A stretch of 64,000 nucleotides of DNA from Aureococcus anophagefferens (Eukaryota; Sar; Pelagophyceae; Pelagomonadales; Pelagomonadaceae), in contig NW_008705571.1 of NCBI RefSeq assembly GCF_000186865.1, forward strand, positions 770,530-834,529, given 5' to 3'. Positions 4,091 to 32,611 of the stretch are shown one piece after another (positions within the stretch are counted from its first letter, which is position 1; every line of letters begins with the position of its first letter). The notes under the pieces were generated by a model, which was not told the DNA's origin, searched no databases, and saw nothing but the letters and a program-made list of their open reading frames with translations. A program made the position numbers and the translations under genes.

Positions 4091-5713
4091 CCTTGGGCTT
4101 CGCGCAGGTCGACGCGACGGTCGCGAAGTCGCGGTCGAAGGCGGCCGCGCTCGGGAGCGGGAGCGGTCCGAAGGGCACGGACGGCCCCGGGATCTTCACG
4201 TCCGGGGCGATGCCGACGCCCTGGATCGCCGTGCCCGCGGGCGTGAGGTACTGGGCGACGGTGACGACGAGGCCGCTGGAGTCGGCGAGGCCGAAGACGG
4301 CCTGGATCTTGCCCTTGCCGTAGGACCGGTCGCCCGCGACGACGGCCGCGCAGTTGTCGCGGAGCGCGCCGGAGAAGATCTCCGACGCGGACGCGGAGCC
4401 GCCGTCGAGCCAGAGCTCGACGTCGTGGGCCTGGTTCCGGGAGAAGGCCAGCGTCGACGGCGGCTTGGCCTTGAAGGTCTCCTTGCGCTCGCGGTCCGCG
4501 TTCTGCGCGTCGACGCGCTCGACGACGGTGACGACGGGCGTCCCCTCGTTGAGAAACAGCGACGCGGCCGTGATCGCCGACTGGAACGCGCCGCCGGGGT
4601 TGCCGCGCAGGTCCAGCACGTAGCGCGTCGCGCCCTGGCGCTCGAGGTCCGCGAGCGCCTCCGCGAGCCGCTCGCCGCTCCGCGCGTTGAACTCGCGGAG
4701 CCGCACGTAGCCGAGGCGGTTGTCGCCATCGTAGAGCGTCCGGCCGATCGGGTCCGCGATGTCCGGGATGTCGCGCTTCAGCGCGAGGGGCCGCGGCGCC
4801 GCGTCGCCGTCGGACACGACGCCGAACGTCGCGACCTTCTTGTCCTCGCTCTTGTCGATGACCTCGAGCAGCTCGAAGGAGCTCAGGCCCGCCGTCTTGA
4901 CGCCGTTGAGCGTGTCGACGATGTCGCCCTGCTTGACGGCGCCGCTCTTGGCCGCCGACGAGCCCGGCAGGGGCGGCGACCTGTGTGCAAATCAACCAGT
5001 GAGCTGGGACGTCGGGGCCAAACTTCAGAATTCTCTAGCTCGGTCAAATCGAAGTCGATTCGGCTGATTTTTGGACGAATCGATTGCTCTCAGCGAAGTC
5101 TCGAAGCACGGCGGAAGTGCTCGTGTCAAAGCATTCGCATACGCGCACATTGAAGTCGGATTGAAGATTTGATTTGCACACCGAGCGGCGACACGACCTT
5201 GGCGCGGCCGTCTGCCCCTGGCGACAGGATCAGCCCGACGCCGAGGATGTCGAAGCGCGCAACGGCGGCGTAGCCCGCCGGGTCCAGGAGCCGCGTGTAC
5301 TTGTCGGCGCCGAGCGCCTTGAGCGCCTCGCCTCGAAACCTTAAGGCCGAGCCCGGATTCTTCTCCGCGGCCGCGCCGAACGTCTCGCGTGCCGCGAGCC
5401 ACTCGGGCCGTCGCCTCGCAGCACCGTCATAATAATACTTTTCGAGCAGGTCCACCGTTTCTTCGACGAGCGCGCGGCCATCAGTAGCGGGCGTCGCCAG
5501 CGCCGCCGACGGGAGCGCGACGATGTTCACCGCGGCCAGGCACGCGCACGCGGTCTTCAGGCACTGCTTCGCGACGACCTCGAGCGTTTGCGGCGCGGCG
5601 TTGGCCCGCTGCGGCGCGCTGGGCTCGCGCTGCGGCGTTTGCAGGCGCTGCGGCCGCAGCGCTGAAGCCGTCGCGACGCATAGCGCGGCAAAGAGGACCT
5701 TGAGCACGGACAT
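4080..5713 (-). CDS. ctpA: C-terminal processing peptidase (CtpA), plastid lumen
   Basis: Spliced 473-aa serine protease of family S41, the enzyme that trims the D1 precursor of photosystem II in the thylakoid lumen. Exon 1 is 5713-5193, exon 2 is 4980-4080, and the intron 5192-4981 is an introner insertion. The N-terminus is a signal peptide (MSVLKVLFAALCVATASA) cut before LRP, an ASAFAP-like motif, then a transit region and a second hydrophobic stretch ending ALA, consistent with lumen import. A PDZ domain spans the splice junction (SPPLPGSSAAKSGAVKQGD). The protease core shows LDLRGNPGG, GGSASASEIFSGAL (nucleophile Ser about 371) and SYGKGK (Lys about 396); their 25-residue spacing matches known CtpA/Tsp enzymes. 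The gene is convergent with the MHS transporter. Confidence 0.93.
4981..5184. mobile_element. Introner element, copy A (in ctpA)
   Basis: Non-coding insertion of 204 bp flanked by the 8-bp direct repeat GCGGCGAC (4973-4980 and 5185-5192). Its ends are inverted repeats: GTGTGCAAATCAA at 4983-4995 and its exact complement at 5169-5181. The body shares CTAGCTCGGTCAAATCGA and GGCTGATTTTTGGACGA with copies B, C and D. The ctpA gene runs on the minus strand. There the intron starts with the duplicated target GTCGCCGC and ends with the element end CACAG. Removing 212 nt (5192-4981) restores the frame V-V-S-P-P-L-P-G of the PDZ domain. The left tip is CTGTGTG; the right tip has diverged by about one base. 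Confidence 0.93.
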
Positions 5714-6401
5714 GCTCGCCTAGGACTCCGCGGCGTCCCCCGGAGGCGACTCCGCGACCTCCGCCGCCTGCGAGCTCTCCGCCGACCAGATGGTGAACCT
5801 AAGGAGCGAGGGCGTCGACGTCGCGCGTCCTCGGGGCGTGCGGGAAATGGGGGTGCGGCGGGGGCGGCGGGGGCGGCGACGGTGACGGCGGCGGCGGGGG
5901 GCGAGGCCGCGACGGCGGGGGGCGACGGCGACAGAGTGACGGCGACGGCGGCGCTGAGGCCGAGCCCGGCGCTTCGCTCGGCGCGGAGCCCGCCGGCCGG
6001 GGCCGCAGCGACGGCGCGGTTGCCCGCACGATGTCCACAGCCACGAGTCGGGACCGTGGAGCACCGCGCGGCGGTCCCGTCCGCAGCTGCCGACCGCGCG
6101 CGCCGTCGCCGGGCGCGACCGCGACGGAGAGCAGTCTCCGCGCGGCCGCGTCCCGAAACGCGGCACACACGCGAAAGCAGCCCCGCCGTCATCTTTCACG
6201 TCGCCGCAAATCCCCGCACACCGTCAGCGTCGCGCGCGTCGCGGGAGGAGGAGAGCAGCGCGTCGCTCACCTTGGTAGAGCAGCGAGAGCCGAGACAGCG
6301 ATTTATCGCGTGCCCTGGCCTCTTGATGCCGTCGCAGGACACGAGGACGACTCGGCAGATCGCGGAGCTGAGTCGAAGTCAAGCCAGATAGTCAAGCCGG
6401 T
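5714..6401. other. GC-rich spacer with a possible terminal exon at 5798-5720 (minus)
   Basis: No complete gene was resolved. On the minus strand an acceptor CTCCTTAG at about 5799 is followed by an open stretch 5798-5720 encoding FTIWSAESSQAAEVAES and ending in TAG, which has the look of a last exon. The upstream sequence (about 6200-5800) is proline/arginine-coding in every frame and gives no recognisable domain. The spacer also separates the divergent starts and ends of ctpA and the DENN gene. Confidence 0.3.
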
Positions 6402-8981
6402 TCAACGTTGCCCCTCAAGTTGCCCCTCGAAGCCGAGCTCCGTGATGACGGAGGGGTCGTCGAGCTGGAAGGCGGAGGCGTCGTCGTCGGCGGCGGGCGC
6501 GGCGAAGGTGTGGGGCGACTTGGAGCGCTGGGGCGAGATGGACGCGCGCGGGCGGTGGAGCGGCGTCGCGTCGATCGCGTCGGGCAGGTCCGTGGGCGAC
6601 GGGGGCCGCCAGCTCACGGTCGCGAGGAGCGGGTCGTCGTCGACGGACGTCGGCGACTCGCCGGCGTCGCGCTTCGGCGCCGGCGCGGGCCGGTCCGCGC
6701 CGACGCCGAAGCCCGCCGCGGGCCGGTCCGCGCCGACGCCGAAGCCCGCGAAGGTGGGGAACGACTCGCGGTAGACGGCGTAGGCCTGGGACTCGGCGAC
6801 GCGCTCGAAGAAGACGCGGCGCATGGGGTCGCGGGCGATGGACTCGTCGAGGCGCAGGTTCGTCGACCGCCGCGCCCAGAGCGCGGACGCGCGCGGGTCG
6901 CCCGCCTCGAGGAAGCCGCCGCGGACGAGCGACCGCGAGCACTCGACGCTCCCGCCGCGCCGGCCCGCCGGGGGGGGCTCCGCCGCGTCCTCGTCGTCGC
7001 CGTCGTCGAACTCCTCGCGCATCAGGTTCGCGAACTCGACGGACTCGCGGCCGCGGACCGACTCGGCGAGGCGGCTCCGCCGCGCGGGGTTCGCGGCCTG
7101 GGTCGACTCGAACTTGAGGGCGACCGTCGCGAGCTTGGCGACGTGGCGGCAGACGACGCGCGCCGCGTGGCCCGCGGCGTCGCGCGCGCGCGGCGCGTCC
7201 GGCGCGTCCGCGCCGCGCGCGGCCTCGACGAGCGGCGCGAGCGCGTCCGCGAGCGCGTCCGCGTGGGGCAGCTCCAGCAGGTCCGCGTCGTGGGGGTGGA
7301 AGCAGAGGCCCCCGTCGTCGGCGTCGAGGACGAAGAAGCCCGGCTTCGGCAACCGCTCCGCGATGCACCGCGCCCACGTCTCCGTCCGCGGCGCGCCCAC
7401 GAGGAAGGGCACGGGCGCCTCGAGGAGCGCGTGGAGCTGGGCCGGGAGCACGGGCACGAGGGGGCCGACCCAGAGCAGGGGCCGCGCGAGCGCCGCGAGG
7501 CCGAGCACCGCGGCCGCGCCCCGCGCCGGGTCGCGCGAGATGACGACGACCTGCATCTCGCAGAGCGCGCCCGCGAGCGCGCGCAGCAGCGTGTGGAGCG
7601 GCAGCAGCCGCAGCAGCCGGGGCACGGCCCAGTGCGCCGTCGCGTCGACGGCCGCGTACTCCGCGGCCGTCCACGCCATGTGCGGCGCGACGGCGTCCGG
7701 CAGGTCCACGGGCCGCGCGCCCCGGAGGAAGTCGAGGCCCGTCGTCGCCGCGGGCCGCACGCCGCGGCGCGGCTCCGCGGCCGGGTCCGCGGCGAAGGCC
7801 GCGGGCATGCCCGGCTTCGGCGCCTCGACGGCCGCGTAGCGGCCGAAGACGCGGCGGAGCGCGAGGTGGCGGTCCCGCGAACGGCGCGCGACGGCCAGCG
7901 CGTCGCGGAGCACGGCCGCGTGGAGGTCGAGGAGCGGGAGCCGCGTGAGGAGGCACGTCGCGCGCGGCACGGCGAAGGAGCCCGACGCCGTGGCGCGCGA
8001 CGCCCACTCGACGACGCAGACGCCGTAGACGAGCGACTGCGACTGGCCCGCGGCGGCCGCCGCCGCGGGGCCGTCGTCGGGCAGGGAGAGCTGGAAGACG
8101 AAGGCGTCGTCGTCGCCGTCGGGCTTGGACCGCTCGACGCGGACGCCGTTGGGGAAGCAGAAGGGCAGCACCTCGCCCGCGAGCTCGCCGGGCTCGCGCC
8201 GCGGGTAGCTCCAGAGCAGCTGGGGCGTCACGGCGCCGGGCTCCGTCGCGTGGAGGCAGTCCTTCGGCGGCGCCTCCTTGTCCGTCGCCGGCTTCTTGCC
8301 TACCACGCACGACGGTGACGATTTTTCCACCCCGAATCTCTCGAACATCGTCGCGGCCGCGGGACGCCGCGTCCCGCCCGTGCGCTTGAGCATCTTCGCC
8401 GCGAGGCGCCGCGCGGACGCCTTCCAGCGCTGCGACATCGTGCGCCGCGGGTGCGCCGCCGTCTCCTTGCCGTCGATCTTCGCGAGGGCCGCGAGCTTGT
8501 CGAGGTCCCAGGTCTCGGGGACGCCGACCTCGAGCGCGCGCTCGAAGAGCGGCGCGGCCGCGGGCGGCTTCGGCGGCGCCGGCGGGGCCCACGCGTCCCG
8601 CGCGGCCGCCCAGGCCGCCGCGGAGTCGCTGCGCGGCGCCGCGCGCTCCGCGAGCACGCGCACGGACAGCGAGAAGCGCGCGTCGTAGACGCGCTTCTTG
8701 TGCGTCTGCACGTTCGCGGTGCAGAACTCCAGCAGCGGCAGCGCGGCGCGGCGGTCGCCCGCGAGGAGCTGGTCGCGCAGGTCCGGCGTCGGGTCGAGGC
8801 CGAGGACGCGCAGGAGCGCGATCTGGTCGTCGACGTCGCCGGAGACGGAGCCGTCGATCTCCTGCAGCACGTCGGCGAGGAGGGCCCGGAGCCGCGGGCC
8901 CGACGTCTTGAGGTCCTGCGGCGTCGCGGTCTTGTTGATCTTCGCGAGCGCCGCGGCGAGGGCCGCCTCGGGCTGCGCCAT
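6402..8981 (-). CDS. IFT81-type CH domain fused to DENN domains
   Basis: Intron-less 859-aa protein. Residues about 25-112 resemble the N-terminal calponin-homology domain of the ciliary protein IFT81: LLADVLQEID, then LLRVLGLDPTPDLRDQLLAG and THKKRVYDARFSLSVRV follow the IFT81 order (DVLAEID, LKYKP, KKRAYLARF). In IFT81 this domain binds tubulin. A linker leads to a uDENN region starting near 211 (FERFGV, LLWSYPRREPGEL), a cDENN core around 455-600 (LCEMQVVVISRDP, PLLWVGPLVPVLP) and a dDENN-like tail. DENN modules are Rab GDP/GTP exchange factors. The C-terminal region has a tandem AGFGVGADRP pair. The start is the ATG at 8981, because the 18 upstream in-frame codons begin without ATG. The single uninterrupted frame argues against an artefactual join of two genes. 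Confidence 0.75.
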   Translation of the reverse strand: MAQPEAALAAALAKINKTATPQDLKTSGPRLRALLADVLQEIDGSVSGDVDDQIALLRVLGLDPTPDLRDQLLAGDRRAALPLLEFCTANVQTHKKRVYDARFSLSVRVLAERAAPRSDSAAAWAAARDAWAPPAPPKPPAAAPLFERALEVGVPETWDLDKLAALAKIDGKETAAHPRRTMSQRWKASARRLAAKMLKRTGGTRRPAAATMFERFGVEKSSPSCVVGKKPATDKEAPPKDCLHATEPGAVTPQLLWSYPRREPGELAGEVLPFCFPNGVRVERSKPDGDDDAFVFQLSLPDDGPAAAAAAGQSQSLVYGVCVVEWASRATASGSFAVPRATCLLTRLPLLDLHAAVLRDALAVARRSRDRHLALRRVFGRYAAVEAPKPGMPAAFAADPAAEPRRGVRPAATTGLDFLRGARPVDLPDAVAPHMAWTAAEYAAVDATAHWAVPRLLRLLPLHTLLRALAGALCEMQVVVISRDPARGAAAVLGLAALARPLLWVGPLVPVLPAQLHALLEAPVPFLVGAPRTETWARCIAERLPKPGFFVLDADDGGLCFHPHDADLLELPHADALADALAPLVEAARGADAPDAPRARDAAGHAARVVCRHVAKLATVALKFESTQAANPARRSRLAESVRGRESVEFANLMREEFDDGDDEDAAEPPPAGRRGGSVECSRSLVRGGFLEAGDPRASALWARRSTNLRLDESIARDPMRRVFFERVAESQAYAVYRESFPTFAGFGVGADRPAAGFGVGADRPAPAPKRDAGESPTSVDDDPLLATVSWRPPSPTDLPDAIDATPLHRPRASISPQRSKSPHTFAAPAADDDASAFQLDDPSVITELGFEGQLEGQR

Positions 8982-9218
8982 CCCCTTCTGCGCTCGCAGG
9001 CGAGGCGTCTGTTTGAGCGCGCCGTCAACCGGCAAGAGATAAGCGGGCTGCTTCCTTGAATGACGGATGGTTCAACTTCTTGTTCATCTTTAGCCTCCGC
9101 TAGCTGGCTATGGTGCCAGCAGCTCTTGCGTGCTTGCGAAACGCTCTCGCGTCTTTGCGCCACGCGCGAAGAGCCATGCGCGATGCGTAGCTTACTGCTC
9201 ATCACCCCCATCGCAGCC

Positions 9219-10040
9219 ATGCGCTACGCCGTCCTGTCGCACAACATCATGGACGGCCTGCATATCGACCGGCTCCTGCCGCGCTACGCGCGGCAGGCGC
9301 GCCGCCTCGAGCGCTTCGGCGGCCTGGGCCTCTTCTGCGTGCAGGAGAACGCGCGCTTCGGCGCGCTCGACGCGGCGGACCGCATCGCCCACGCGCTCGC
9401 GCGCGCCGGCGGCGGCCAACGATGGGCCGTCGCGCGGTGCGCCGAGGACCCGCGGCTAGCGACTGTCGTCGACGCGCGGCGCTGGCGCGTGCGGCGCGGC
9501 GCGGGCGTCGCGCTGCCCGTGCTCGACGCGCTGTCGCCCCTGGAGCGCACCTACATCCGCGGCGGCGCGCCGGAGCAAAAGTACGCGCAGACGACGTCGC
9601 TCGCGCCCCGGGACGGCGGCCCGCCGCTCGCCGTCGTCAACGTGCACCTCGACGCGGCGGGCGACAACGCGCACCGCGCGCGCCAGGCCGCCGTCGCCGC
9701 CGCCGCCGTCGGCGGCGGCCGCGTCCTCGCGGCGGGCGACACGAACTGCTTCGCGGCGTCGCGCGCCGCGCACGCGGCCGCGCTCGACGACGTCCTCGCG
9801 CCGCTCCGAGCGCTCGGCGCCGAGGACGCGCACGCGGCCGCGCCGGCGGACACGCACTGGTTCGCGCGGACGACGGAGGCCGGCGTCGGCCACCGGCTCG
9901 CGCGCGCGCTCGGCGCGCTCGGCGTCGACGCGCCGCGGCGCTACGACGTCATCGCCGCGACCGCGCGGCCCGTCGCCGCGGGCTACCTGCGCACGCCCGA
10001 GTCGGACCACGACGCCGTTTGGGCGGCGTTTGCAGGTTGA
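9219..10040 (+). CDS. Endonuclease/exonuclease/phosphatase (EEP) family protein
   Basis: 273-aa protein with the EEP fold found in DNase I, exonuclease III and inositol phosphatases. Seen in order: VLSHNIMDG near the N-terminus, the metal-binding Glu in LFCVQEN at about 44-50, NVHLD in the middle, AAGDTN, and the C-terminal SDHDAV with the catalytic His. These match the family residues Asn, Glu, Asp/His, Asp-Asn and Asp-His. The substrate cannot be told. ATG 9219 is chosen because it directly precedes the first strand; an in-frame ATG at 9177 would add 14 residues. Short pieces of this gene recur at 10217-10243 and 13285-13326. Confidence 0.85.
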   Translation: MRYAVLSHNIMDGLHIDRLLPRYARQARRLERFGGLGLFCVQENARFGALDAADRIAHALARAGGGQRWAVARCAEDPRLATVVDARRWRVRRGAGVALPVLDALSPLERTYIRGGAPEQKYAQTTSLAPRDGGPPLAVVNVHLDAAGDNAHRARQAAVAAAAVGGGRVLAAGDTNCFAASRAAHAAALDDVLAPLRALGAEDAHAAAPADTHWFARTTEAGVGHRLARALGALGVDAPRRYDVIAATARPVAAGYLRTPESDHDAVWAAFAG

Positions 10041-10054
10041 AGCGGCGTTTAACC

Positions 10055-10072
10055 TATCCCGCCGGCGGGATA
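10055..10072. other. Perfect palindrome after the EEP gene
   Basis: TATCCCGCC followed immediately by its complement GGCGGGATA lies 15 bases after the stop codon of the EEP gene. It could form a hairpin in the 3' UTR or be a dyad protein-binding site. No further evidence. Confidence 0.5.
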
Positions 10073-10216
10073 TGTTCGTGATATTTACGGCGCGCGCTGG
10101 CATGTGAAGACCGGTCCCCACCTAGCTTACCTTCTTCTACTAGTAGCCAGATCCCCACCACTCTCTTCGAAGGAGAGAGAGGCGTGGTCTTTACTTGCCG
10201 GAGGCACGCACACTCG

Positions 10217-10243
10217 GCGTCGACGCGCCGCGGCGCTAGGGCC
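10217..10243 (+). pseudogene. Shard of the EEP gene
   Basis: CTCGGCGTCGACGCGCCGCGGCGCTA is identical to an internal stretch of the upstream EEP coding region (about 9919-9944). It is followed at once by unrelated sequence. It is too short to encode anything and sits in the EEP 3' flank. The rest of 10041-10460 holds no gene; a 20-bp piece at 10300-10319 recurs inverted at 12191-12210. Confidence 0.6.
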
Positions 10244-10460
10244 GTTGCGTAGCTTCATCGACTCGGATATGTCGTCAACGCAACGTGAAAAACGCGATTT
10301 ACAGTGGGATTTCTCTATAGCACCTTGCCGTCAATCGACGCCAGAGGGGTCGTCGATCGGCGCCGATTGTACCGCTTTTTTTACCGCCGGACGGCCTAAC
10401 GCACCGGCTCGTCGGAAACGACAAACATTTATGGGTAGCGCCACCGAGTGCGTCGGCGTC

Positions 10461-11079
10461 CTAGTCGGCCGCGCGGGCCGCGGCCGCGGGGTTGTTCGCG
10501 GCGTCTCGGGCATATGTGATGCGGCGGGCGCGCGTCACGGTGCGGCCCGCGCGTGGCGCGGCCTGCGGGGCGAGGCCGCTGGTCTGGCGGTGCGACTTGT
10601 ACTGCTTCTTCAGCGCGGGGATCTTCGCGAAGTCGCCGTCGCGGCCGATCTCCCGGAGGGCGCGCATGATGTCCAAGGAGCGCTGCATGTAGTTGCGCTG
10701 GTTCGAGATGGGCACGGACGCGAGGGACAGCGGGAACTGGCGCTTGAGCCCCGTGATGGTGTAGTCGCAGAGCTCGCGCGTCTTCCGCTTCGCGTCGTTC
10801 CAGTACTGCTCGACCCACTGGAGGTCGCGGTCCGTCCGCCGGGGCCCCCGTCGGGGCCGGCGCGGGCGCGGCAGGCGAGCCGCTCCGTGCCCTGCGCGAC
10901 GTGGTAGCGCCGCGACGCCAGGCGTCCTGCGCCGACTCGTTGCCGAGCAGCTCTGCCGCGTTTCGCCGCTTCCGCCGCTTCGGCGACGGCGGCTCGGTCT
11001 CCTTCGCCTCCGCCGCCGCGGGCGTCGGCTCGTCGTCCTTCGCCTCTGCCGCGAGCATCGGCTCGTCGGCGTCGGCCAT
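10461..11079 (-). pseudogene. Frameshifted or mis-split gene for a basic nuclear-type protein
   Basis: Two coding-like blocks lie in different frames. The first starts at ATG 11079 (MADADEPMLAAEAKDDEP) and carries a nuclear-localisation-like cluster SPKRRKRRN, then runs to about 10900. The second reads TDRDLQWVEQYWNDAKRK, then PLSLASVPISNQRNYMQRS and LDIMRALREIGRDGDF, and ends at the stop at 10461. The piece between them (about 10840-10900) reads as WRRYHVAQGTERLA only if two small frame changes are allowed. No GT-AG pair was found that joins the blocks cleanly. Either a decaying gene, assembly errors, or an unrecognised intron. No family was recognised. Confidence 0.4.
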
Positions 11080-12171: not shown

Positions 12172-12190
12172 CTCGACCCCGGCGCTGGGT

Positions 12191-13238: not shown

Positions 13239-13883
13239 AATTAACATGTATGTGTGACGTGTGCGCGTCGCCGGGAACGCCGGGAACGCCGCCCAGACGG
13301 CGTCGTGGTCCGACTCGGGCGTGCGCCGCGGCAGGTCCGAGTCGCCGTGGGCTCTTTCACGAGCGCCTCGCGCACTCGCGAGCCCGCGCCAGGGTAAGAA
13401 ACCGCAGCGGTCCGCAAATACGACCGAACAGTGGCAGGCGCGGGTTCGCGGGCCGGTCTCAGGCCGGACCCGTAGCTTGCGAGCTCGAGGGCCGTTGCGT
13501 TTTAGTTGTCGTTCATGATGAATGCAGTGCGCGCAGATCGTCGCGCGGCGGAGTTGGTGCGCTCTTGGCTTGGCAGCCCTCGTAGCGTCTCTCGACGGCG
13601 CATCGCGTGAAGAGCGTCGCCGTGTCGTCCTGGTGGTGCGGGTACGCGTGCCTCGTCGACGGCGGCGCGTCGCACATCTCGAAGGAGCAGCCCGTCTCCG
13701 CGTTGGACACGTTGACGCAGTACCAGTCGCAGCCCGGCGTCGTGGCCGAGCGATCCTCGATTCCGGGCAGCGGCTCACGGCGGCTCGCGGCGGCCGCGGC
13801 GCGGCGCGCGCGGGCGACGGAACGTTAGCGCGCGCGCGTGTGCCTCTCGGAGCTGCCCATTGCCCATTGCGCCTTTTGCCGTC
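13239..13883. other. Intergenic with an EEP gene fragment
   Basis: No complete gene. On the minus strand 13326-13285 repeats the 3' end of the EEP coding region (encoding RTPESDHDAVWAAF) with one mismatch in about 41 bases, and then diverges. A short GCCGGGAAC duplication follows. The remaining sequence up to the ATG at 13884 is the presumed promoter of the Zn-cluster/PAS gene. Confidence 0.55.
13285..13326 (-). pseudogene. 3' fragment of an EEP-family gene
   Basis: The fragment matches 9992-10031 of the intact EEP gene on the opposite strand, including the catalytic SDHDAVW codons. The preceding codons differ but keep a similar ACCTGC motif. It is too short to be functional and has no start codon. 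It marks a past duplication or gene-conversion tract. Confidence 0.6.
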
Positions 13884-18239: not shown

Positions 18240-20286
18240 ATGTTCATTTGGATCATCGCAACCGTAGCTTTGCTAGGAGCGCAAGCCGATGAAGTGGACT
18301 ACTGCGTCTTCGACGCCGATGCGTGCCTGGAAACCTTTTACGGCATGGAGTCCGCCGACGCGGATTGCTGCACCGGAGGCGATCTCACGACACCCGGCTG
18401 TGTCGAGGGCTACGAATATTCGGACATTTTAAAAGGCGACGGGTGCGCCGCGGTGGGCCAATACTGGGGAGACACGTTCTCGACCACGTGCTGCGTGGCG
18501 CCGTCGAGCGGCGACGGCGCGCCGCGGCCGTCCGCCGCGCCGTCGTTCCTGCCGAGCGCCGCGCCATCCGCCGCGCCGTCCTCGACGCCCTCCGCCGCGC
18601 CGTCGTCGACGCCGTCCGCGTCGCCGTCCGCGTCGCCGAGCGCGTCGCCGTCGTCGACGCCGACGGCCACGCCCAGCGCCGCGCCCCATGGGAGCGCCGC
18701 TCGGAGCGCCGCGCCGTCGTCGCCGCGGGCCGCGCCCGCGCCGACGCCGCGGCCGACCGCGGTGTCGCTCGAGGCCTTCGTCGGCCTGTCGAAGGACGAG
18801 GACCGGTCCGTGGCCTTCTCCGTGATCTGGGCCGCGGGCCTCGTCGTCGCCGGCGCGCTCTTCACGTGGCTCGAGGCGTCGTCCATCGTCGCGGGGCACG
18901 TCGTCGAGAGCCCCAAGGCCGTCGTCTTCCTCGCGACGGTGGACTTGACGTCCGTCCTCGTCTTCGGCATCGAGCTCTGGGCCAGCGGCGCCTACGTCCT
19001 CGCGTCCGCGAACGCCGCGGGCTTTGGCGTCGCGGCGCTGCTCTCGCGGCGGCTCTCGCGCGAGCTCCGCGGCGCCTACCGCCTCGACGAGGCGAAGATC
19101 GCGGCGCTCGGGCCCCGGCTCGTCCGGGTGATCCGCGCGCTCGCGACGGTCAACCCGGAGCTGCTGCCGATCCTGCCCTGGAAATTCGAGGCCGCGGACG
19201 TCGCGACGCTCGCGGACGGCTGGCCGTCGGAGGCGTCGGCGCGGCGGTCCTTCTACGCCATGGTCGTCCGCGACGGCACGGAGCTCCTCACGGCGACGTA
19301 CTACGTCGCGACGGAGGGCGTCGCGGGCGAGTTCCGGGGCAGGAAAAGCGTGCAAAGGCTCCTAGCTCGGTCGTTTTTGGCTGATTTTTGGACGAGCGAT
19401 CATCTCTCGGAGCGGGCGAGTTCCAGGGAAGGATGCGAAATTCCCAACTTCAAAGGCTCCTAGCTCGGAGCGGCCTCGACGCGTCGATGTCTTTCCTGGA
19501 ACGCGCGCGCGCGGAACACCCATATTGCAGCGACACCCTATTCCAGGCGAGTTCGGCGCGCTGCTCTGCCTGCTGCTGTCGCTGCTCGACGTGCTCTACC
19601 TCTTCTACGCGCGGCTCCTGCGGAACCTGAAGCTCAAGGAGCTCGCGCGGCGGCGGCTCGCGGCCCGGGGCGTCGACCCGGCGAAGCCGCTCGCCGCGGT
19701 CGGCGTCGACGACCCGGACGCGGCCATCGAGTTCGTCGACGCGCCCTGGGCCAAGGCGCGCAAGGCGTCCGCGGAGTCGAGCCAGGACATCATGACCGTC
19801 GAGGAGCAGGAGACGAACCTCGAGATCCTGCGGAAGCTGCGACGACGGAACCGCGACCAGGCCGGGGCGAGCGCCGAGGACGCGAAGGACGACGACGCCG
19901 TCGCGGGCAAGGCGCCGCCGCTGAGCGTCGAGGACCAGGTCGAGCTCCGCCGGGCCATCGACCGGGCCATGGCGCGGTACCGCGTCCGGCTCTCGGCGCG
20001 CGCGAGCTCGACGATCCCCGACGGGCTCCTCAAGCGCGACCGGCGGGCCTCGAGCCGGTCTTCGGCGTCGAGCGTGCGGAGCAGCGCCGGCGCGTCCCAG
20101 CCGCCGGCGATCCAACCGCCGCAGCCGTCGCGCCTGCGGAGGATGCTCTCGCCGCGGGGCGGCGGCTCGTTCCTGCCGAAGATCTTCTCGCCGCGGGGCG
20201 GCGGCTCGTTCCTGCCGAAGATCTTCTCGCCGCGGCACCCCGACGCGGGGACCGACGCGGACGCGTTCGCCGGCGCTGCTGTGTAA
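18240..20286 (+). CDS. Multi-pass membrane protein with Cys-rich ectodomain (spliced)
   Basis: 608-aa protein from exons 18240-19326 and 19547-20286; the intron is introner copy D. Layout: signal peptide (MFIWIIATVALLGAQA), a ~75-residue cysteine-rich module with eight or more Cys, a Ser/Pro/Ala stalk of PSAAPS-type repeats (about 95-170), then several hydrophobic helices (FSVIWAAGLVVAGALF, AVVFLATVDLTSVLVFGIEL, and ALLCLLLSLLDVLYLFY right after the splice junction), and a charged cytosolic tail. The tail ends in a tandem SPRGGGSFLPKIF pair encoded by a 36-bp repeat. No family was recognised. The architecture suggests a cell-surface receptor or channel-like protein. The splice restores VAGEFGALLC. 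Confidence 0.7.
19335..19546. mobile_element. Introner element, copy D (internally duplicated)
   Basis: 212-bp insertion flanked by GCGAGTTC (19327-19334 and 19547-19554). The core GGCTGATTTTTGGACGA matches copies A and B. The subsegment AAAGGCTCCTAGCTCGG occurs twice (about 19355 and 19452), as does GCGAGTTCC, so the element carries a partial internal duplication. The terminal inverted repeats are badly eroded. Within the gene the intron is 19327-19546: it begins with GC from the target duplication and ends TTCCAG. No GT-AG alternative keeps the frame. Confidence 0.82.
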
Positions 20287-25403: not shown

Positions 25404-27068
25404 ATGGACCTCCTCGATCTCCTCAACGAGAAGCAGTCGATCGATGCGGCCATCAACACACTCGACGCAAAATTACACAAACAAACCACAACACCCACGG
25501 CGCCGACACCCACAGCGGCTCCGACGACCGGTAAACCTCTGGGCCCCGCGACCGCCCTCGCCTACTGCGACGCATTTCGGCTCGCCGTCGTCGCGCGCGA
25601 CGACAGCAAGATCGACGTCGTCGACGTCGATAGCGGCCGCGTCGTCGCGACGGTCGAGGTCGACGGCGCCGGCGGCAAGTGCGTCGTCGGCGCGGCGGCC
25701 GCCGGCCCGGACGTGCTCGTCGTCGCGGCCTTCCGCGACAAGGTCTGCCAGCGCTGGCTCTTTGAAAAACGCGCCGGGAGCGCCTGGACGCGGATGACGA
25801 CGAAGGCGACGACGTCGCGGCCGCTCGGCGACGCCGCCGCGCGCGCCGTCGCGGTGGGCTCGAAACGCGTCGCGATCGTCCTGCCGAAGCAGACGCACGT
25901 ATTGGATCTCGCGTCGCTCGAAGCGACCGCGACTCTCGACGCGCCCGGCGGCGGCGCCTTCCGCGGCGCCTGCTGGACGAAAGACGACGCGCTCGCGGTC
26001 GTCGGCAGCTTCGGCGCGGCGACGTGGCGGCCAAACGCGCCGCTCGTCGCCGTGCCCGGCGTCGCGGGCGCCGCGCGGGCCGTCGCGGCGACGCCGTCGG
26101 GCGGCTTCGTCGTCGCGCTCGAGGCCGCGGTCGCGTACCGCGAGGACCGGTCGGGCGAGCTCCGCGAGGTCGCGAAGGCGGCGCCGCCGCTCGTCGTCGC
26201 GAGGGACGACGCCGTGCCCCTCATCGTACGGCCCGCGGCGGCGGCCGGCGTCGTCGGCGAGGTGAGCTTCTCCGGCTTCGGCGGCGGCAACGTGCCCGCG
26301 GGCTTCCTGCTCCCGCGCGACGACGCGCCGCCGCCGGCTCCCGCGCCGCCGCGGGCGTCGACGCCGCGCCTCGCGCGCGTCGAGGAGGCGCGCGGCGCCT
26401 TCGCCGTCGCCGCGTCCGCGGCCGTCGGGGCGCTGCCGCGCGGCGCCGCGCTCGTCGACCACTGTGTGGAAATCAACCGGTGAGCTGGGACGTCGGGGCC
26501 AAACTTCAGAAATCTCTAGCCCGGTCAAATCGAAGTCGATTCGGCTGATTTTTGGACGAGTCGATTGCTCTTGTGTCGAAACGGCCGGGTTGAATATTTG
26601 ATTCCCACACAGGTCGACCACGTCGCGTGCCACGGCGACGAGGTCTCCGCCGCGAGCGGCTTCGACGCTCACTGCACCGTCGCGCGCTTCGCCCTCGACG
26701 GCCTCGCGCCGCGGCCGCCGGTCGCGCTCGCGCCGCCGGCCGCCAAGTCCCGCGTCCGCGGCCTCGCGGCGCGCGGGAACGGCGACCTCGTCGCGCTCGT
26801 GCAGCTCGACGCCAGGGCCGCGCCGCTCTGCGGCATCGGCGCGGCGGCGGCGCCCGCGGAGGCGCGCGTCGTGGACGTGGCGCGGAGTCCGGCGCCTGTG
26901 GCGGCAGCAGCTCCGAAAGCTTCGAAACCGAAAGCCGCAGCCGCGCCGCCGCCCGCGGCGCCGCGGTCCGGCGGCCTCGCCGCGGAGCTCGCGGACCTCC
27001 GCCGCCACGTCGACGCTCGTTTTGATGCGTTGGAGAGCAAGCTCGACGCGGTTTTGGCTCGGCTTTGA
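25404..27068 (+). CDS. Beta-propeller-like protein with C-terminal coiled coil (spliced)
   Basis: 501-aa protein from exons 25404-26453 and 26613-27068, interrupted by introner copy B; splicing restores ALVDHVACHGDE. After a short helical N-terminus (MDLLDLLNEKQSIDAAINTL) come repeated strand patterns such as AYCDAFRLAVVARDDSKIDV, VDSGRVVATVEV and VGSKRVAIVLPKQTHVLDLA, as in degenerate WD-type propellers. A Pro/Ala linker and a final helix LADLRRHVDARFDALESKLD complete it. No signal peptide. The overall shape (propeller plus coiled coil) fits scaffold or vesicle-coat adaptors, but no family is recognised. Confidence 0.65.
26462..26612. mobile_element. Introner element, copy B (best preserved ends)
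   Basis: 151-bp insertion flanked by GTCGACCA (26454-26461 and 26613-26620). The ends are CTGTGTGGAAATCAA and, as reverse complement, CTGTGTGGGAATCAA (14 of 15 match). The body shares GAGCTGGGACGTCGGGGCCA and the GGCTGATTTTTGGACGA core with copy A. The host gene is on the plus strand, so the element lies in the opposite orientation to copy A relative to transcription. The intron is 26454-26612: GT from the target copy, CACACAG from the element. Confidence 0.95.
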
Positions 27069-27117
27069 TAATATTTTTTAACTTGAACATTATCTTGAAC
27101 TTGATGAGGGCTGCTTC

Positions 27118-28600
27118 ATGATGGTGGTGGCTAAGCCTTGCGGCATGCTGCGCGTCGACGTGCAATACCTCGTCGAGCCATCGCACAGCGTGCGCCTCAC
27201 GCTCGCGGAGAAGCACCGCCGCACGCGCGCCTGCGGCGTGCTCGTCAAGAGCTTCCTCAAGAGCTTCCGCGAGAAGCATGGCGCAGGCCTCGACGACGCC
27301 GCGCCGCGCCTCGCGCTGCGGCGAGCGAGGGACGGCGCGATCCTGGACCGCGACGCGCTGATCGGCGACGCCCTCGAGGACGGCGACGTCGTCGTGCTCG
27401 AGCCGCCTTCGGAGCGACCGGAAGAGCCGCCGCCGCCGTCGTCGCTGCGCTGCGTCCTCCGCGCGCGCGCCGACGCGGAGATCCGCGCGCTGGAGCTCGT
27501 GGCCCGCGCGCCGCCGTCGGGCAAGAAGACGATCGCCGTCAAGGGCAAGGCCGTGGCCGCGGACTACCGCGCGGCGGACCCGCGGCTCGAGATCCGCCAC
27601 GAGCCGCGCGTCGGCAACCGCCTCGCGGCGCGCTACCTCGCGCGCGGCGCGCCGGCGACCTACGACGCGGCGCGGCCGCGCGTCGCGCTCATCGTCGAGA
27701 CGCGGCCGACGCCCTGGCTCGTCCTCGCGATCCGCAACGCCGTCGACGTCCTCGCGGACGACGGCGGCGGCGACGACGGCCGCGTCCGCGGCTGGAACCT
27801 CTGCGTCGCCGGCGACGCGGCGACGCTCGCCTACGTGCGCGCGCGCGTCGACGGCGCGTTCCTGACCATGGAGCTGCCGGGACCGCTCGCGGACAACGCG
27901 GCGTTCTCCGCGCTGCTGTTGGAGCGGGACGTCTCGGGACGGCGTCCTCCCTGAGCTCGTTCTCGCCTGGAAGACATGCATCCCTAGGTCTGGGAGGCGC
28001 TGCGGCCCCACGAGCACGTGCTGATCTTCCAGACGGACTGCGTTTTTCATTTCGGCGTCCTTCTGACACTCGTGCGTGGGGGACTGATCGTCGCGCGTTT
28101 CTAGGTGTTACTTCGGCCGCCGCGCGTGTCGGACATGCGCTGGGGTCTCGTCCGGCGTCCTTGGTGTAGCCCGAACAAATGCACGCGATAGGCCTCATCG
28201 GCGCGGTCTGCGGCGGCTTCGAGGACATCCTGGAGTACTCGTGCAACGGTGGCCTCTCGCTGCGGCGCGTCGACGCCATGCTTCACTGCGTCGGCGCGGC
28301 GACGGACCGCGAGCGGCTCGCGCCCGAGGACGTGACGTTCTCCGCGTGCCTCCTGCGCACGGACGCGCCCGACGCCGAGCTGCGCCTCGCGGACAAGGAC
28401 TCGGCGTTCCAGTTCGCCGTCGAGGAGTGGGGCGACCACCAGTGTCCTGTGGCCATTTGGGGAATGCACCTCGCATGTTAGGCGACCACCGGACGTGCGT
28501 CGGCATCCACGGCACGGACAAGGGCTTCCTCGACCCGCAGACGGTCCGCGCGATCCTCCGCCACGCGGACGCGGACCGGCGCAAGCGCGCCGTAACGTGA
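27118..28600 (+). CDS. DUF5672-type glycosyltransferase-like protein (five exons)
   Basis: 421-aa protein, exons 27118-27930, 27988-28041, 28105-28144, 28192-28431 and 28482-28600; the total is an exact multiple of three. The first ~95 residues look like a small beta-grasp domain. The rest follows the DUF5672 pattern: PRVALIVETRPTPWLVLAIR, HEHVLIFQTDC in a nucleotide-sugar-enzyme-like position, CNGGLSLRRVDAML, APEDVTFSACLL and VGIHGTDKGFL. These proteins are glycosyltransferase-like but uncharacterised. The last intron (28432-28481, 50 nt) is a GC-AG intron bounded by a direct repeat. The gene ends 13 bp from the convergent PAQR gene. Confidence 0.75.
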
Positions 28601-28613
28601 CACAACAAACAAG

Positions 28614-29495
28614 TTACGTAGCGGGGCACGTCGAGCCGACGCGGAGCGCGAAGAGCCGCGCGTTGCCCCGCTGGGCGAGGAGCGGGCCGACCATGGTGAA
28701 GACGTGCCACCACTGGTGGCTCGCGCCGACGATGTCGCAGAAGATGGGCATGTCGCGCCGCCGCCGAATCCAGCGCTCGGGCACGTGCGTCGCGCGGACC
28801 GCGAAACCGGCGACGCCGGACAGCGAGCCGAGCACGAGCAGCCGGACGGGACCGCGGGCCGCGGCCCTGGCGGCCGCGTCGAGCGACGGCCACTCCGTCG
28901 CGAGGAACCCGACGAGCGGCGCGTGCAGGAGCACGAACATGGGCGCGAGCGCGTCCGGCCGCTCGTAGGCGACGGCCAGAATGGAGAGGGAGCCGTAGGC
29001 GAGCGTCGCGACGCAGACCCAGACCGCCAACAGATCCCGCCGGCAGTAGAGCAGCAGGTAGCCCTCGAGCGCCGCGCGGCTGCTCAGCAGGCACGCGATG
29101 CCCGCGAAGTCGAGGCGCCAGGCGAGGCGCGACGCCGCGGGCCCGCGGCAGTGGAAGGCGTGCGCGAGGCTGGACGCGAGCGGCATCAAAGCGCAGAGGC
29201 CGTAGAGGACCACATGCGCTCGACGGGTACCGCCGTCCGCGGACGCGAGCGGCTCCGCGGCGAGCTGCGCCGCGCTCGCGTGGACCCACGCCGCGAGGCC
29301 GAGCACGTGCGACCAGATGTTCAACGTCTCGTTGTGCAGCTGGAAGAGCGAGCGCGCGCAGTCGCAGGCGTCGTAGCCGAGCCGGTAGCCGCCGAGGATG
29401 TGCTTGTAGGGCGCGTACCACGCCGGCAGCTCGTTCGACGCGCCGAGCCGGCGGCTCGCGCTGCTCCAGCCGGCGCCCGGCTTCGTGAGGTCCAT
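28614..29495 (-). CDS. PAQR family seven-helix receptor/hydrolase
   Basis: 293-aa membrane protein of the progestin and adipoQ receptor / haemolysin III-like superfamily. Landmarks are the entry motif ILGGYRLGYDACDCARSLF with LHNETLNIWSHVLG, a first His-bearing helix SSLAHAFHC, seven hydrophobic segments, and the final zinc-site motif GASHQWWHVFTMVG. The three His positions fit the family's metal-dependent ceramidase-like centre. It would sit in plasma membrane or Golgi. ATG 29495 is used; the codon before it is GTG. Single exon. The partner ligand is unknown. Confidence 0.88.
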   Translation of the reverse strand: MDLTKPGAGWSSASRRLGASNELPAWYAPYKHILGGYRLGYDACDCARSLFQLHNETLNIWSHVLGLAAWVHASAAQLAAEPLASADGGTRRAHVVLYGLCALMPLASSLAHAFHCRGPAASRLAWRLDFAGIACLLSSRAALEGYLLLYCRRDLLAVWVCVATLAYGSLSILAVAYERPDALAPMFVLLHAPLVGFLATEWPSLDAAARAAARGPVRLLVLGSLSGVAGFAVRATHVPERWIRRRRDMPIFCDIVGASHQWWHVFTMVGPLLAQRGNARLFALRVGSTCPAT

Positions 29496-29842
29496 CACGT
29501 CGTTTGCAGCGCGCCGTACACCATGGCTTTCTTACGGTCGCTCACGTGCTTTTATCGATGCGCTTCATCGCTGGGTTTGCAGCGATTTTGGAGCTGCCCA
29601 TTGCGCCGCAAGTCGTCGATGCCGATGATGCCGGGTTCGATGACGACTCGCCGATCTCCACAGCAAAAGTAGAGCAAGAGGCTTGCGCGTCGACGCGAGC
29701 AACACCGCGCGTCCCGCCTCCGACACACGCTCCGCACCGCGCCGCAACGCGCCGGAGCATCGCGGCTGAGCGCCGCCCGCGTCGAGCACCAGCGCACCCC
29801 GAGCGCCGCCGACCGACATCCGCAACCCGCCGCACGACAAAC
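29496..29842. other. Upstream region of the TMEM128-like gene
   Basis: The frame of the TMEM128-like protein stays open upstream to an ATG at 29558 (MRFIAGFAAILELPIAPQVV, signal-like). The longer protein would have a basic, low-complexity linker, which argues that the ATG at 29843 is the real start. A separate small exon at 29558 is possible. Otherwise this is a promoter region between divergent genes. Confidence 0.4.
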
Positions 29843-30316
29843 ATGGCGCCGACGCAACGCTACGCGCGCGTCCCTACGACGGAGGAGGATTCAAAGGCCG
29901 CGGCGAACAAGAAGCGCCGCAGCGAAGCCGCGGAGAACATCGCCACGAAGATCCAGGCGCTGGCCTGGGTCGCGACGGGCGTCTTCGTCGCCTACCAGAC
30001 GGACCTGCCCTTCGTGATGCTGTCGCACCCGGACGTCAACCGGTTCTGGTTCAACATCGCGGCGTCGTGCTTCACGATGAACACGGTGCTGTGCGCGTAC
30101 TTGACGCTCTGGCTGCCGTACGTCCAGCGAGTCACGACGGAGTGGGCGGTCTACTGCCCGCGCGTGATCCCGACGATGACGGCCATCGGCGTCGTCTGCG
30201 GCATCTCGCTCATCCGCGGGCTCTGGCCCGTCTGGGGCCTCCTCACGCCCTTCATCCTCGCCATCATCTTCATGGCGTGTCTCATGTCGCTCCACTTCAT
30301 CCCGTGGCCGTTCTAG
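29843..30316 (+). CDS. TMEM128-like ER membrane protein
   Basis: 157-aa protein with four hydrophobic segments matching the TMEM128 pattern: IQALAWVATGVFVAYQTDLP, HPDVNRFWFNIAASCFTMN, WLPYVQRV, and GLWPVWGLLTPFILAIIFMA. TMEM128 proteins are small, conserved four-helix proteins of unknown role, probably in the ER. The charged N-terminus (MAPTQRYARVPTTEEDSKAA) is cytosolic in style. Single exon. Confidence 0.8.
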   Translation: MAPTQRYARVPTTEEDSKAAANKKRRSEAAENIATKIQALAWVATGVFVAYQTDLPFVMLSHPDVNRFWFNIAASCFTMNTVLCAYLTLWLPYVQRVTTEWAVYCPRVIPTMTAIGVVCGISLIRGLWPVWGLLTPFILAIIFMACLMSLHFIPWPF

Positions 30317-30848
30317 GGCGCCGCGGTCGTGGCCCGGCGTGGTTCGTCTAAGAGCCTTCGCTCCGCTGTGTTACTGTTAATCGCAATTGGACGCTGCTTC
30401 GGGCCCGGCGGTGCGGAGAGGCCATACGACACCCGGGCCGTGACTGACGTCGCGCGCTGCCGCAGCTAGTCGCCGGGAGTCGCCTGCGGAGATCTGCGCA
30501 TGCTCCGGAGCTCCTCGAGCGAGGCGTCGGGCCGCTCAGAGCCGCTGCGCCGCGGCGGGGCCCACTGCCGGCGCGCGCGCGGCTCTCGCGCGGCTCGCGG
30601 GATCGCGAGCCTGCTGTGGCAAGTCTCAGTGATGGCCGCGTTCTCGTCCAATTGGTCAGACTAGCCTTCAAGCGGAAAACAACGCAAGTTTGATTCAAGT
30701 CCAATATTCGCCCACGGGAGCACTCGCCTTGACGCCGCGCGCCGACGACCGAATCGCTGCCTCCGACGCGCACTCGCCTTGAAACAGCAGCGCTGAACTG
30801 CCTCCATCGCGTTTCAGAGCTCTAAATAGGGGCCGCACACACCACACT
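30317..30848. other. Intergenic
   Basis: No gene is supported. ORFs on the minus strand are arginine/serine-rich shadows. The 100 bases before 30849 include TTTCAGAGCTCTAAATAG, a possible core-promoter region for the transporter. ACTCGCCTTGA occurs twice (about 30721 and 30771). Confidence 0.45.
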
Positions 30849-32611
30849 ATGCAGTGCGTCCCTACGTGCAAGCCTGCCGACCCGAGCGAAGCCCCGGTGG
30901 GCTTCGGGCAGGTGGCAAACACCGTGCTGCACCTCCGCGCCGCGGAGGAGGGCTTCAAGCGCGCCGACCGCAAGCAGAGCATGGAGGTGCTCACGCCGCG
31001 GCACGACGCCGCCGAGCGGTCCGCGTCGGTCGTCGGTTGCGTCTTCGCCATGCTCGCGACGATCGTCGGCGGCGGCGCGCTGTCGCTCCCCTACGCCCTG
31101 AAGTCGCTCGGCGTGCTCAAGGGCCTCGCGATCCTCGCCGTCGCCGCCGTCGCGTCGGACCTGTCGCTCTTGGCGCTGTGCTCGGCGTCGCGGCGCACGG
31201 GCATCGTCGCCTTGCCGCAGCTCGCGCGGCACACGCACGGCAAGAAGGCCGAGGTGCTCTGCAGCGTGTCCCTGCTCGTGCTCTGCGCCTTCGTCGCCGT
31301 CGCCTACGTGAGCCTGCTGCGGGACATGCTCGCGCTCGCGACGGGCTGGGCGGGAAACAAAAATATGCAACACGACTTCAATATGAATGTATTCGCACGC
31401 AACCATGTCGCTGTCTGTCAGGAATCCACCGAGAGAAAACGATCCGTCCAAAAATCAGCCGAAACGACCTCGATTTGACCGAGATAGAGAGGTTCGAAGT
31501 TTCGCTGGACGGGGCCGTTCCACCGGTTGTTTCCGGCACAGGCGACGGGCCTCGACGACGGCAGGGTCCTCTACTTTTGCCTCATCTTCGTGCTCCTGCC
31601 GCTGTCGCTCTTCCACGACGTGAGCCGCCTCTCCTTCGCGGCCGTCGTGTCCTTCTGCGCCGCGATCCTCGTGTCGGCGACCTTCGCGATCCGCGCGCCG
31701 GCGGCGCTCGACCGGGGCGGCGCGGGCTGGGCGGATCTGGTGCTCGCGCCGGGCGAGGCGCCGGACGCCTTCGCGGCCCTCGGCGCCGTGCCCATCGTGT
31801 CCATCCTCTACCTCTGCCAGTTCAACATCCTCTCCGTGCACAGCCGGCTCCACGACCCGACGCGCGACCGGCTCAAGACGCTCGTCCACACGGCCGTGGG
31901 CCTGTCGACGCTGCTCTACGTCGTGCTCGGCCTCGCGGGGCTCGCGGTCTGCCGCGACGTGCCCCTGGACGACGCGCAGGACGCGCTGGCCGGCGTCCTG
32001 TTTCGAGAGCTTTCGACCGAAGGAACGTCGTCGCTCGGTAGGCGCTCGCGTGCCTCGCGGAGAACGACGCCGCGGACCCGCTCCTCGGGACCTGCGCGCT
32101 GGCCTTTGGCGTCGCGATCCTGCTCAACACGCCGGCGATCGTCATCCCGCTCCGCGACTCGCTCGAGGCGCTGCCCGCGGTCTTCGGCTGCGCCTCGCAG
32201 GCGGCGCCGGCGACGCCGCGGACGATGCGCCTCGACGAGCGCGCGCGGCTCACTACGCCGACGAAGGAGGAGGAGGAAGAGGCACCCGTGCGGTCGCGCG
32301 CGTCCGTCGCGGCCCAGGGCTACCACTTCCTGCTGACCGCGGCGCTCGTCTTCCTCTCGTGGTGCGGCGCGACGTACGCCCCGGGCGTCGCCGTCGTCTG
32401 GGCCTTCGCCGGGTCCTCCGTGGGCCTCTTCATCTCCTACGCGCTCCCCTGCGCGCTCTACCTCCACGTCCGCCGCCACAAGCGGTCGCCCAAGGTCTAC
32501 GCGTGCCGCGCGATCCTCGCCGTGTCCGTCGTCCTCATGGCCGTGTGCTTGGCGCGGAACGTCGCGACGTCGCTGGCGGCGCCGTTCGTCGCGGACGATG
32601 ACGATGCGTGA
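30849..32611 (+). CDS. Amino acid/auxin permease (AAAP) family transporter (spliced)
   Basis: 503-aa transporter of the SLC38/AVT-type amino-acid permease family (Aa_trans). Exons 30849-31337, 31542-31994 and 32042-32611; the first intron is introner copy C, the second a 47-nt GT-AG intron. TM1 carries the family signature SVVGCVFAMLATIVGGGALS with LPYALKSLG. About 11 helices follow, including FDVSRLS-type loops (LFHDVSRLSFAAVVSFCAAI) and a C-terminal pair. These are H+- or Na+-coupled carriers of plasma or vacuolar membranes. The cytosolic loop TPTKEEEEEAPVRSR is acidic. Splicing across copy C restores LALATGLDDGRVLY. Confidence 0.88.
31346..31541. mobile_element. Introner element, copy C
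   Basis: 196-bp insertion flanked by GCGACGGG (31338-31345 and 31542-31549). The ends CTGGGCGGGAAACAA and, as reverse complement, CTGTGCCGGAAACAA match at 13 of 15 positions. The core is present in reverse orientation (TCCAAAAATCAGCCGAAACG, CGATTTGACCGAGATAGAGA). The intron 31338-31541 starts with GC of the target copy and ends GGCACAG, so it is a GC-AG intron. Both flanking exons are phase 0 at the target site. Confidence 0.92.

What the first reader, a model, noticed from the sequence alone, without database searches (positions are those of the whole stretch)
4981..31541. A family of intron-creating transposable elements (introners), four copies in four genes
Four unrelated genes (CtpA, a membrane protein, a propeller-like protein, an amino-acid permease) each carry an intron that consists exactly of one copy of an 8-bp target duplication plus a 151-212 bp element. 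Seen directly: flanking direct repeats GCGGCGAC, GCGAGTTC, GTCGACCA, GCGACGGG; inverted-repeat ends of the form CTGTGTGNNAATCAA in the three best copies; and a shared core with GGCTGATTTTTGGACGA and CTAGCTCGGTCAAATCGA. In every case the coding frame closes only if splicing removes the duplicated target and the element together. Introners behaving as non-autonomous DNA transposons are known from Aureococcus and Micromonas; this family fits that model.
Basis: partly seen in the sequence, partly recalled or inferred. Interest (0 to 1): 0.9.

Follow-up and report, generated by a model that had tools for sequence, protein, structure and literature searches.

The report
Intron-making transposons in an Aureococcus-like alga
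Short transposons scattered through this alga's genome appear to become removable introns where they land in genes; this kind of element is already known from brown-tide algae, but here one changed letter at the element's tip seems to decide whether it can act as an intron.

Summary
Each of the four genes carries an insert flanked by an exact 8-bp duplication; removing the insert plus one duplicate restores the frame. The family is genome-wide: CTGTGTGNNAATCAA occurs 1,105 times in 49 Mb, against 0 for the reversed pattern. Of 58 sampled copies with confident coding sequence on both sides, 57 rejoin in frame; their sense strand then begins GC (33), GT (23) or GA (1). The terminal AG is intact at 57/57 downstream and 46/57 upstream ends.

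Corrections: there are two related families; copy 2 belongs to the second. The quoted repeat fits both ends of copy 3 and one end of copy 1; copy 4's ends are diverged.

Such introners are published for Aureococcus anophagefferens; I infer that this genome is that species or a near relative.

Not seen in the papers I could search: family 2 is one-sided. Only one tip carries AG, and it lies downstream in 43 of 43 resolvable pairs listed on one contig, whichever way the core points (10:10 in 20 copies). Tips and duplication length suggest hAT ancestry. I found no autonomous partner and had no RNA.

The parts
4981..5184 (-). Copy 1, family-1 element (204 bp); intron of gene 1 is 4981-5192 on the minus strand, GT...AG
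   Evidence: Exact 8-bp repeats at 4973-4980 and 5185-5192; frame closes on removal; 222.8 bits to the family-1 profile
4973..4980 (.). Target duplication GCGGCGAC, exon copy (the other copy, 5185-5192, lies in the intron)
4080..5713 (-). Gene 1, CtpA-type S41 peptidase, 473 aa after removal of the intron
   Evidence: Pfam Peptidase_S41 1.3e-42; coordinates; P0001 97% identical over 473 aa across the junction
19335..19546 (+). Copy 2, rearranged family-2 element (212 bp) with an internal third GCGAGTTC at 19416-19423; intron 19327-19546, GC...AG
   Evidence: Exact repeats at 19327-19334 and 19547-19554; frame closes; family-2 profile 56.7 bits
18240..20286 (+). Gene 2, predicted membrane protein of 608 aa after removal of the intron
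   Evidence: Open frame; no relative of the membrane part found
26462..26612 (+). Copy 3, internally deleted family-1 element (151 bp); intron 26454-26612, GT...AG
   Evidence: Exact repeats at 26454-26461 and 26613-26620; frame closes; 116.8 bits to family 1
25404..27068 (+). Gene 3, open frame of 501 aa from an ATG (start uncertain) after removal of the intron
   Evidence: no Pfam family in the 474 aa scanned
31346..31541 (+). Copy 4, diverged family-1 element (196 bp), core antisense to the gene; intron 31338-31541, GC...AG
   Evidence: Exact repeats at 31338-31345 and 31542-31549; frame closes; 110.9 bits to family 1, minus strand
30849..32336 (+). Gene 4, amino-acid transporter; frame from ATG to the next stop after removal of this intron (its 3' part probably holds a further intron, so the end is uncertain)
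   Evidence: Pfam Aa_trans 4.7e-25

Best explanation
These are introners: short non-coding DNA transposons (MITE type) that duplicate 8 bp of target on insertion and are spliced out as introns. The duplicated target supplies the upstream splice site (a GC or GT that was there) and the last two bases of the element supply the downstream AG, so splicing removes one target copy plus the element and restores the original message. Shown here: anatomy, in-frame closure, donor and acceptor rules, high copy number, and loss of the terminal AG at upstream ends but not at downstream ends. Inferred: movement by a transposase supplied in trans, probably of the hAT superfamily; actual splicing; and that the host is Aureococcus anophagefferens or a very near relative.
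For: Terminal repeat 553+552 matches, reversed pattern 0. 71 of 105 copies with assigned ends have 8/8 duplications. 57 of 58 copies with confident coding flanks rejoin in strand and phase after removal, 10 would be in phase if nothing were removed. The sense-strand target begins GC/GT in 56 of 57, the other strand in 16 of 57; where only one side has GC/GT it is the coding strand in 39 of 39 (copy 2 left out). Terminal AG intact at 57/57 downstream and 46/57 upstream ends, p=0.0006. Core with the gene 27, against 22, unclear 8. Second family: 900+915 matches (control 2+1) and 931+944 (control 1+1). P0001, 473 aa on a 1,609-base contig, is continuous across the copy-1 junction.
Against: No RNA evidence, and P0001 could come from an intron-free allele rather than a spliced transcript. 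No empty allele was seen. One of 58 copies (L004 1499-1701) does not rejoin in frame. One of 57 has a GA donor. No autonomous element with these ends was found. Nine of the 67 copies tested were not confidently coding on both sides. Codon usage was trained on the window starting from the four genes themselves, so the four window copies are not independent of it.
Confidence: 0.93

Rival explanations
1. The GC/GT at the start of the target and, in family 2, the direction of the element come from the transposase's own target choice rather than from selection for splicing.
For: In family 2, 43 of 43 target-resolved pairs have the AG tip away from the GC/GT, with no exception among the listed places.
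Against: In family 1, whose two tips are usually alike, the GC/GT lies on the coding strand in 39 of 39 one-sided cases, and a transposase cannot see the coding strand. Nearly all tested copies lie in coding sequence, so removal of non-splicing copies can explain the lack of exceptions.
Confidence: 0.1
2. The elements spread as RNA by reverse splicing of excised introns, not as DNA.
For: They sit in coding sequence almost throughout the sample, as expected from mRNA targets.
Against: The 8-bp duplications copy each target and so differ from copy to copy; inverted-repeat ends; the core occurs in both directions relative to the gene (27:22 in family 1; 10:10 in family 2). A spliced RNA has one polarity and would bring its own first bases.
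Confidence: 0.03
3. Ordinary ancient introns that share sequence by chance or gene conversion.
For: None found.
Against: Element-wide similarity (family 1, 76 copies: median nearest identity 0.94; family 2, 20 copies: 0.97), exact duplications and controls near zero.
Confidence: 0.01

Closest known systems
Introner elements of Aureococcus anophagefferens and Micromonas pusilla (Huff et al. 2016)
   Same: Direct repeats and terminal inverted repeats of constant length in A. anophagefferens (passage in PMC7789003); co-opted splice sites and DNA transposition in both orientations (passage in PMC10228655). High GC-AG share: 39.6% of A. anophagefferens introns (passage in PMC3033335) against 33 of 57 here.
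   Different: The original paper is not held, so I could not compare sequences. The one-sided family 2 and the unequal decay of the two tips were not mentioned in the passages I saw.
Introner families surveyed by Gozashti et al. 2022 (PMC9860276)
   Same: Their Fig. 2B type: 5' splice site recruited from the duplicated target, 3' site carried by the element (section 7).
   Different: Their pictured Aureococcus sp. family carries both splice sites and adds 12 bp to the transcript; the families here restore the original length. GC donors here are 58% (33 of 57) against their range of 0-50% per family.
hAT transposons and their MITEs (maize Ac/Ds; Hormin of Fusarium oxysporum)
   Same: 8-bp duplication and CAGGG-type tips: Ac C/TAGGGATGAAA (passage); Hormin CAGGGTTCAAATCCA (passage). 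Family-2 upstream tips read CAGGGCAG; family-1 CTGTGTGCAAATCAA agrees with Hormin at 11 of 15 places, the commoner G variant at 10 of 15. A cited title says maize Ds1 acts as an intron and is spliced (reference list).
   Different: The splice-competent tip reads CTG where hAT reads CAG. No hAT gene linked to these tips was found. The comparison with Hormin was made after the fact.

Membership tests
Introner (intron-generating transposon) | Many similar introns in unrelated genes | tested here: met
   1,105 end matches, control 0; 107 distinct copies over 60 bp extracted
Introner (intron-generating transposon) | Insert removable in frame at splice-site dinucleotides | tested here: met
   57 of 58; family 2 with coding-strand sense, 8 of 8 confident copies outside the window
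Introner (intron-generating transposon) | Target duplications and terminal inverted repeats (A. anophagefferens type) | tested here: met
   71 of 105 with 8/8, 13 with 7/8; ends
Introner (intron-generating transposon) | Actually spliced from RNA | not testable with these tools
   No reads; P0001 is continuous over the copy-1 junction but its nature (RNA or DNA) is not stated
Introner (intron-generating transposon) | Presence/absence differences between strains | not testable with these tools
   The genome has no relatives in the held set
MITE (non-autonomous DNA transposon) | Short, non-coding, inverted-repeat ends, fixed-length duplication, high copy number | tested here: met
   about 203 bp and 192 bp, 8-bp duplications
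hAT superfamily | 8-bp target duplication | tested here: met
hAT superfamily | Tips of the CAGGG type at both ends | tested here: not met
   Family 2 has CAGGG at the upstream tip only (A in 41 of 55 target-resolved ends), CTGGG downstream; family 1 usually has CTGTG at both
hAT superfamily | Mobilised by a hAT transposase with matching ends | tested here: inconclusive

The most novel reading that the evidence does not exclude
A hAT-type MITE became an intron maker through a single-base change at the second base of its tip (CAG to CTG, so that the other strand ends in AG exactly at the target duplication). Family 2 is the one-sided state: one tip still reads CAG, copies are kept only where the CTG tip lies downstream, and its mirror-image lineages are those in which one or the other tip changed. 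Family 1 is the two-sided state in which both tips changed and either orientation splices. That would be a stepwise, testable origin of introners.
Probability: 0.35. Interest if true: 0.72.

Novelty: already known. Interest (0 to 1): 0.45.

Why it matters
Introners are a documented source of massive recent intron gain, and which enzyme moves them is an open question. This window is a clean example, and the genome sample gives a test of selection without RNA: the AG is kept at the downstream tip and lost at the upstream tip. If the one-sided second family holds up, it is a natural experiment on how a transposon tip becomes a splice site, and it points to hAT as the superfamily to look for.

Tried and rejected
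Autonomous partner. Exact terminal repeats followed by unusual inner bases (14, 9 and 27 sites): 49 of 50 are introners, often with one damaged end or a deletion; L052 has no introner sequence and I take it as chance. Two end pairs at odd spacing on C1 (about 0.75 and 4.5 kb) are two separate introners each. Ends whose inner bases look like the common elements were not enumerated: lists stop at 100 places. Pfam MULE: no match, while its controls rang in 4 of 14 genomes. KDZ: no match, but no control rang either, so this says nothing. hAT dimerisation: 4 matches over cut-off, controls silent; around them no CTGTG[TC]G end and only loose 8-base motifs of the family-2/hAT kind, one of them at the very end of L092 where it cannot be judged. 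Other transposase families were not searched.

Viral collections: the core matched one phage contig (L096, 20 identical bases) and the end 17 contigs (longest identical stretch 21 bases, L099 and L112); I judge these chance. The permease protein has no match in phage records. The gene-2 protein gave 32 matches, by length and Pfam label probably to its repetitive part; its membrane part alone gave none.

Hairpin idea: that base 2 of the upstream tip changes so as to unpair the A of the terminal AG. Folding two introns gave z -2.4 and -0.8, and an inherited one-sided tip explains family 2 better. In a tree of 24 family-2 cores the AG side is clustered (5 changes, shuffled mean 8.2, 12 of 500 shuffles as low), so it looks inherited; but only 1 of 21 inner branches is well supported, and the tree is not one split.

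Excess change at base 2 of family-1 upstream tips: 11 of 57 against 2 and 2 at bases 1 and 3, but 9 and 9 at bases 4 and 6, so I claim no excess. Of the 11, eight are plain substitutions, two come from shifted tips (L002, copy 1) and one is copy 2, which is family 2.
Full report
WHAT IS THERE. The window lies in contig C11 of a 49.05-Mb genome in 86 contigs, with G+C of 0.64-0.77 in 2-kb steps and a eukaryotic large-subunit rRNA end at 1-373. Each is flanked by an exact 8-bp repeat, and removing one repeat plus the insert gives an open frame through the junction. Pfam finds Peptidase_S41 in gene 1 and an amino-acid transporter in gene 4, nothing in gene 3; gene 2 was not scanned. Copies 1 and 3 have GT donors, copies 2 and 4 GC donors, and all four end in AG.

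ORGANISM. For A. anophagefferens CCMP1851, 49.9 Mb and 70.5% G+C are reported (PMC11237714, part 1 of 2 of the text). The gene-1 protein is 97% identical over 473 residues to P0001. The protein named A. anophagefferens (P0003) agrees at 110 of 121 and 83 of 85 residues in two ungapped stretches; its overall 70% reflects a gene model that skips an exon beside the introner junction. P0001 and P0003 agree with each other at 115 of 121 in the first stretch. I infer A. anophagefferens or a very near relative.

FAMILY 1, GENOME-WIDE. CTGTGTGNNAATCAA has 553+552 matches and none for the reversed pattern. A search with copy 1 listed 1,694 first-look candidates, 40 scored. From the 95 genome loci then held plus the window I extracted 107 distinct copies over 60 bp and assigned ends to 105: 71 with 8/8 and 13 with 7/8 duplications. 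The assignment rewarded matching duplications and CTG/CAG tips, and some of the 105 are family-2 pieces whose true ends it missed, so these rates are descriptive. Among 76 aligned copies the median nearest identity is 0.94 and the highest 0.995, which suggests recent spread.

SPLICING TEST WITHOUT RNA. I trained codon usage on the window, starting from the four genes (third-position G+C 0.93), and scored 300 bp on each side of the 67 copies with 8/8 duplications, at least 140 bp and enough flank. In 58 both sides were confidently coding. All 58 have the same strand on both sides, and 57 the same phase once one target copy and the element are removed; 10 would be in phase if both were kept. The failure is L004 1499-1701. 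On the coding strand the target begins GC in 33, GT in 23 and GA in 1; on the other strand GC or GT begin it in 16 of 57. Where only one side has GC or GT it is the coding strand in 39 of 39 (copy 2 left out). The core points with the gene in 27, against it in 22, unclear in 8. The 57 include all four window copies, and so one family-2 copy.

UNEQUAL DECAY OF THE TWO TIPS. The terminal AG is intact at 57 of 57 downstream tips and 46 of 57 upstream tips (Fisher p=0.0006). For an element with two like tips this is a mark of selection on splicing. Of the 11 upstream changes eight are plain substitutions (to C 4, A 2, G 2), two are shifted tips (L002 and copy 1) and one is copy 2 of the window.

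FAMILY 2. Copy 2 led to a second family of mostly 192-bp elements with tips CNGGGCAGSAMAAG and the same core GGCTGATTTTTGGACGA. A search with one copy listed 2,044 candidates, 40 scored. The pattern of a GC/GT target plus tip has 900+915 matches (control 2+1), the opposite-side pattern 931+944 (control 1+1). Only the first 100 places of each list could be read, all on contig C1. Together these hold 155 distinct tips. The 55 tips preceded by a GC/GT target only have base 2 = A 41, G 12, C 2, never T. The 55 preceded by the complementary signature only have T in all 55. The 45 that carry both signatures are mixed (T 22, A 21, G 2), as expected if they cannot be resolved. Of 61 pairs each has one T and one non-T; in 43 of the 43 that the target resolves, the T, which gives AG, is downstream; 18 are unresolved. 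I fetched 20 of the resolved pairs, so the base-2 rule was already known for them; new is that the core lies with the gene's direction in 10 and against it in 10. Their duplications match 8/8 in 17, 7/8 in 2 and 6/8 in 1. With direction read from coding sequence instead of the target, 8 of 8 confident copies outside the window agree in frame, donor (GC 5, GT 3), downstream AG and non-T upstream base; four more outside the window were not confident, and three rows that were fragments of copy 2 are left out. So in family 2 only one tip carries the splice acceptor, and which one it is differs between copies. The tree of 24 cores clusters the AG side (5 changes against 8.2 shuffled, 12 of 500 as low) but is weakly supported.

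READING OF THE TIPS. Ac has tips C/TAGGGATGAAA and makes 8-bp duplications (PMC3260210, passages). The Fusarium hAT MITE Hormin has CAGGGTTCAAATCCA with 8-bp duplications (PMC3428301, passages). The upstream tip of family 2 is of this type. Family-1 CTGTGTGCAAATCAA agrees with Hormin at 11 of 15 places and the commoner G variant at 10 of 15; base 2 is one of the differences, and the comparison was made after the fact. In family 2 the non-T base is mostly A with G next, as if A were original. In family 1 the eight upstream substitutions go to C in four, as if T were original. I therefore propose that a hAT-type tip CAG became CTG, which makes AG on the other strand exactly at the target duplication: at one tip in family-2 lineages, at both in family 1. 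This is inference. hAT-like genes exist in the genome but none was tied to these tips.

WHAT IS KNOWN. PMC7789003 (passages) says A. anophagefferens introners always show direct repeats and terminal inverted repeats of constant length. [quoted passage not shown] 2016, which is not held. PMC9860276 (sections 7, 8 and 26, and passages) describes the same splice-site recruitment and a search for mobilising elements whose results lie in a supplement I did not see. PMC3033335 (passages) gives 39.6% GC-AG introns in A. anophagefferens. PMC9481584 (passages) mentions a 210-bp peak of intron length in Pelagomonas. PMC11782384 (passages) adds nothing on Aureococcus. In the listings of my ten literature searches and the passages read I saw nothing on one-sided introner lineages, but the main subscription papers are not in that library.

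LIMITS. No RNA, no second strain, no autonomous partner, organism inferred. Candidate numbers are first-look counts. Samples come from copies similar to copy 1, from listed places mainly on the largest contigs, and from copies with at least one well-kept tip.

Noticed in passing
P0003 against window 4080-5713: The public A. anophagefferens model of gene 1 lacks the exon stretch beside the copy-1 junction and resumes almost exactly there; introns of this kind may be spoiling published gene models.
   Followed up: partly
window 19335-19546: Copy 2 holds a third GCGAGTTC (19416-19423) followed by a second family-2-like left part: a tandem rearrangement or two insertions at one target.
   Followed up: partly
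family-1 elements, about bases 16-40 (e.g. window 4996-5019): Subfamilies differ in a short block next to the left tip that is often palindromic (such as GGGACGTCCC, TGGACGCGTCCA, GGGG..CCCC), while sequence on either side is shared. Meaning unknown.
   Followed up: no
L093 and L094 (C1:943540, C13:599794): Two hAT-like genes are near-identical copies (98.6% over 2.7 kb) on different contigs, beside repeats on the other strand.
   Followed up: partly
window 48431-48730 and 48752-49051: Two direct copies of 300 bp, 92% alike, 321 bp apart.
   Followed up: no
window 9989-10030 and 13285-13326: Inverted repeat of 42 nt, 98% complementary, 3.25 kb apart.
   Followed up: no
window 1-373: 3' end of a eukaryotic large-subunit rRNA gene, cut by the window's start.
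   Followed up: no
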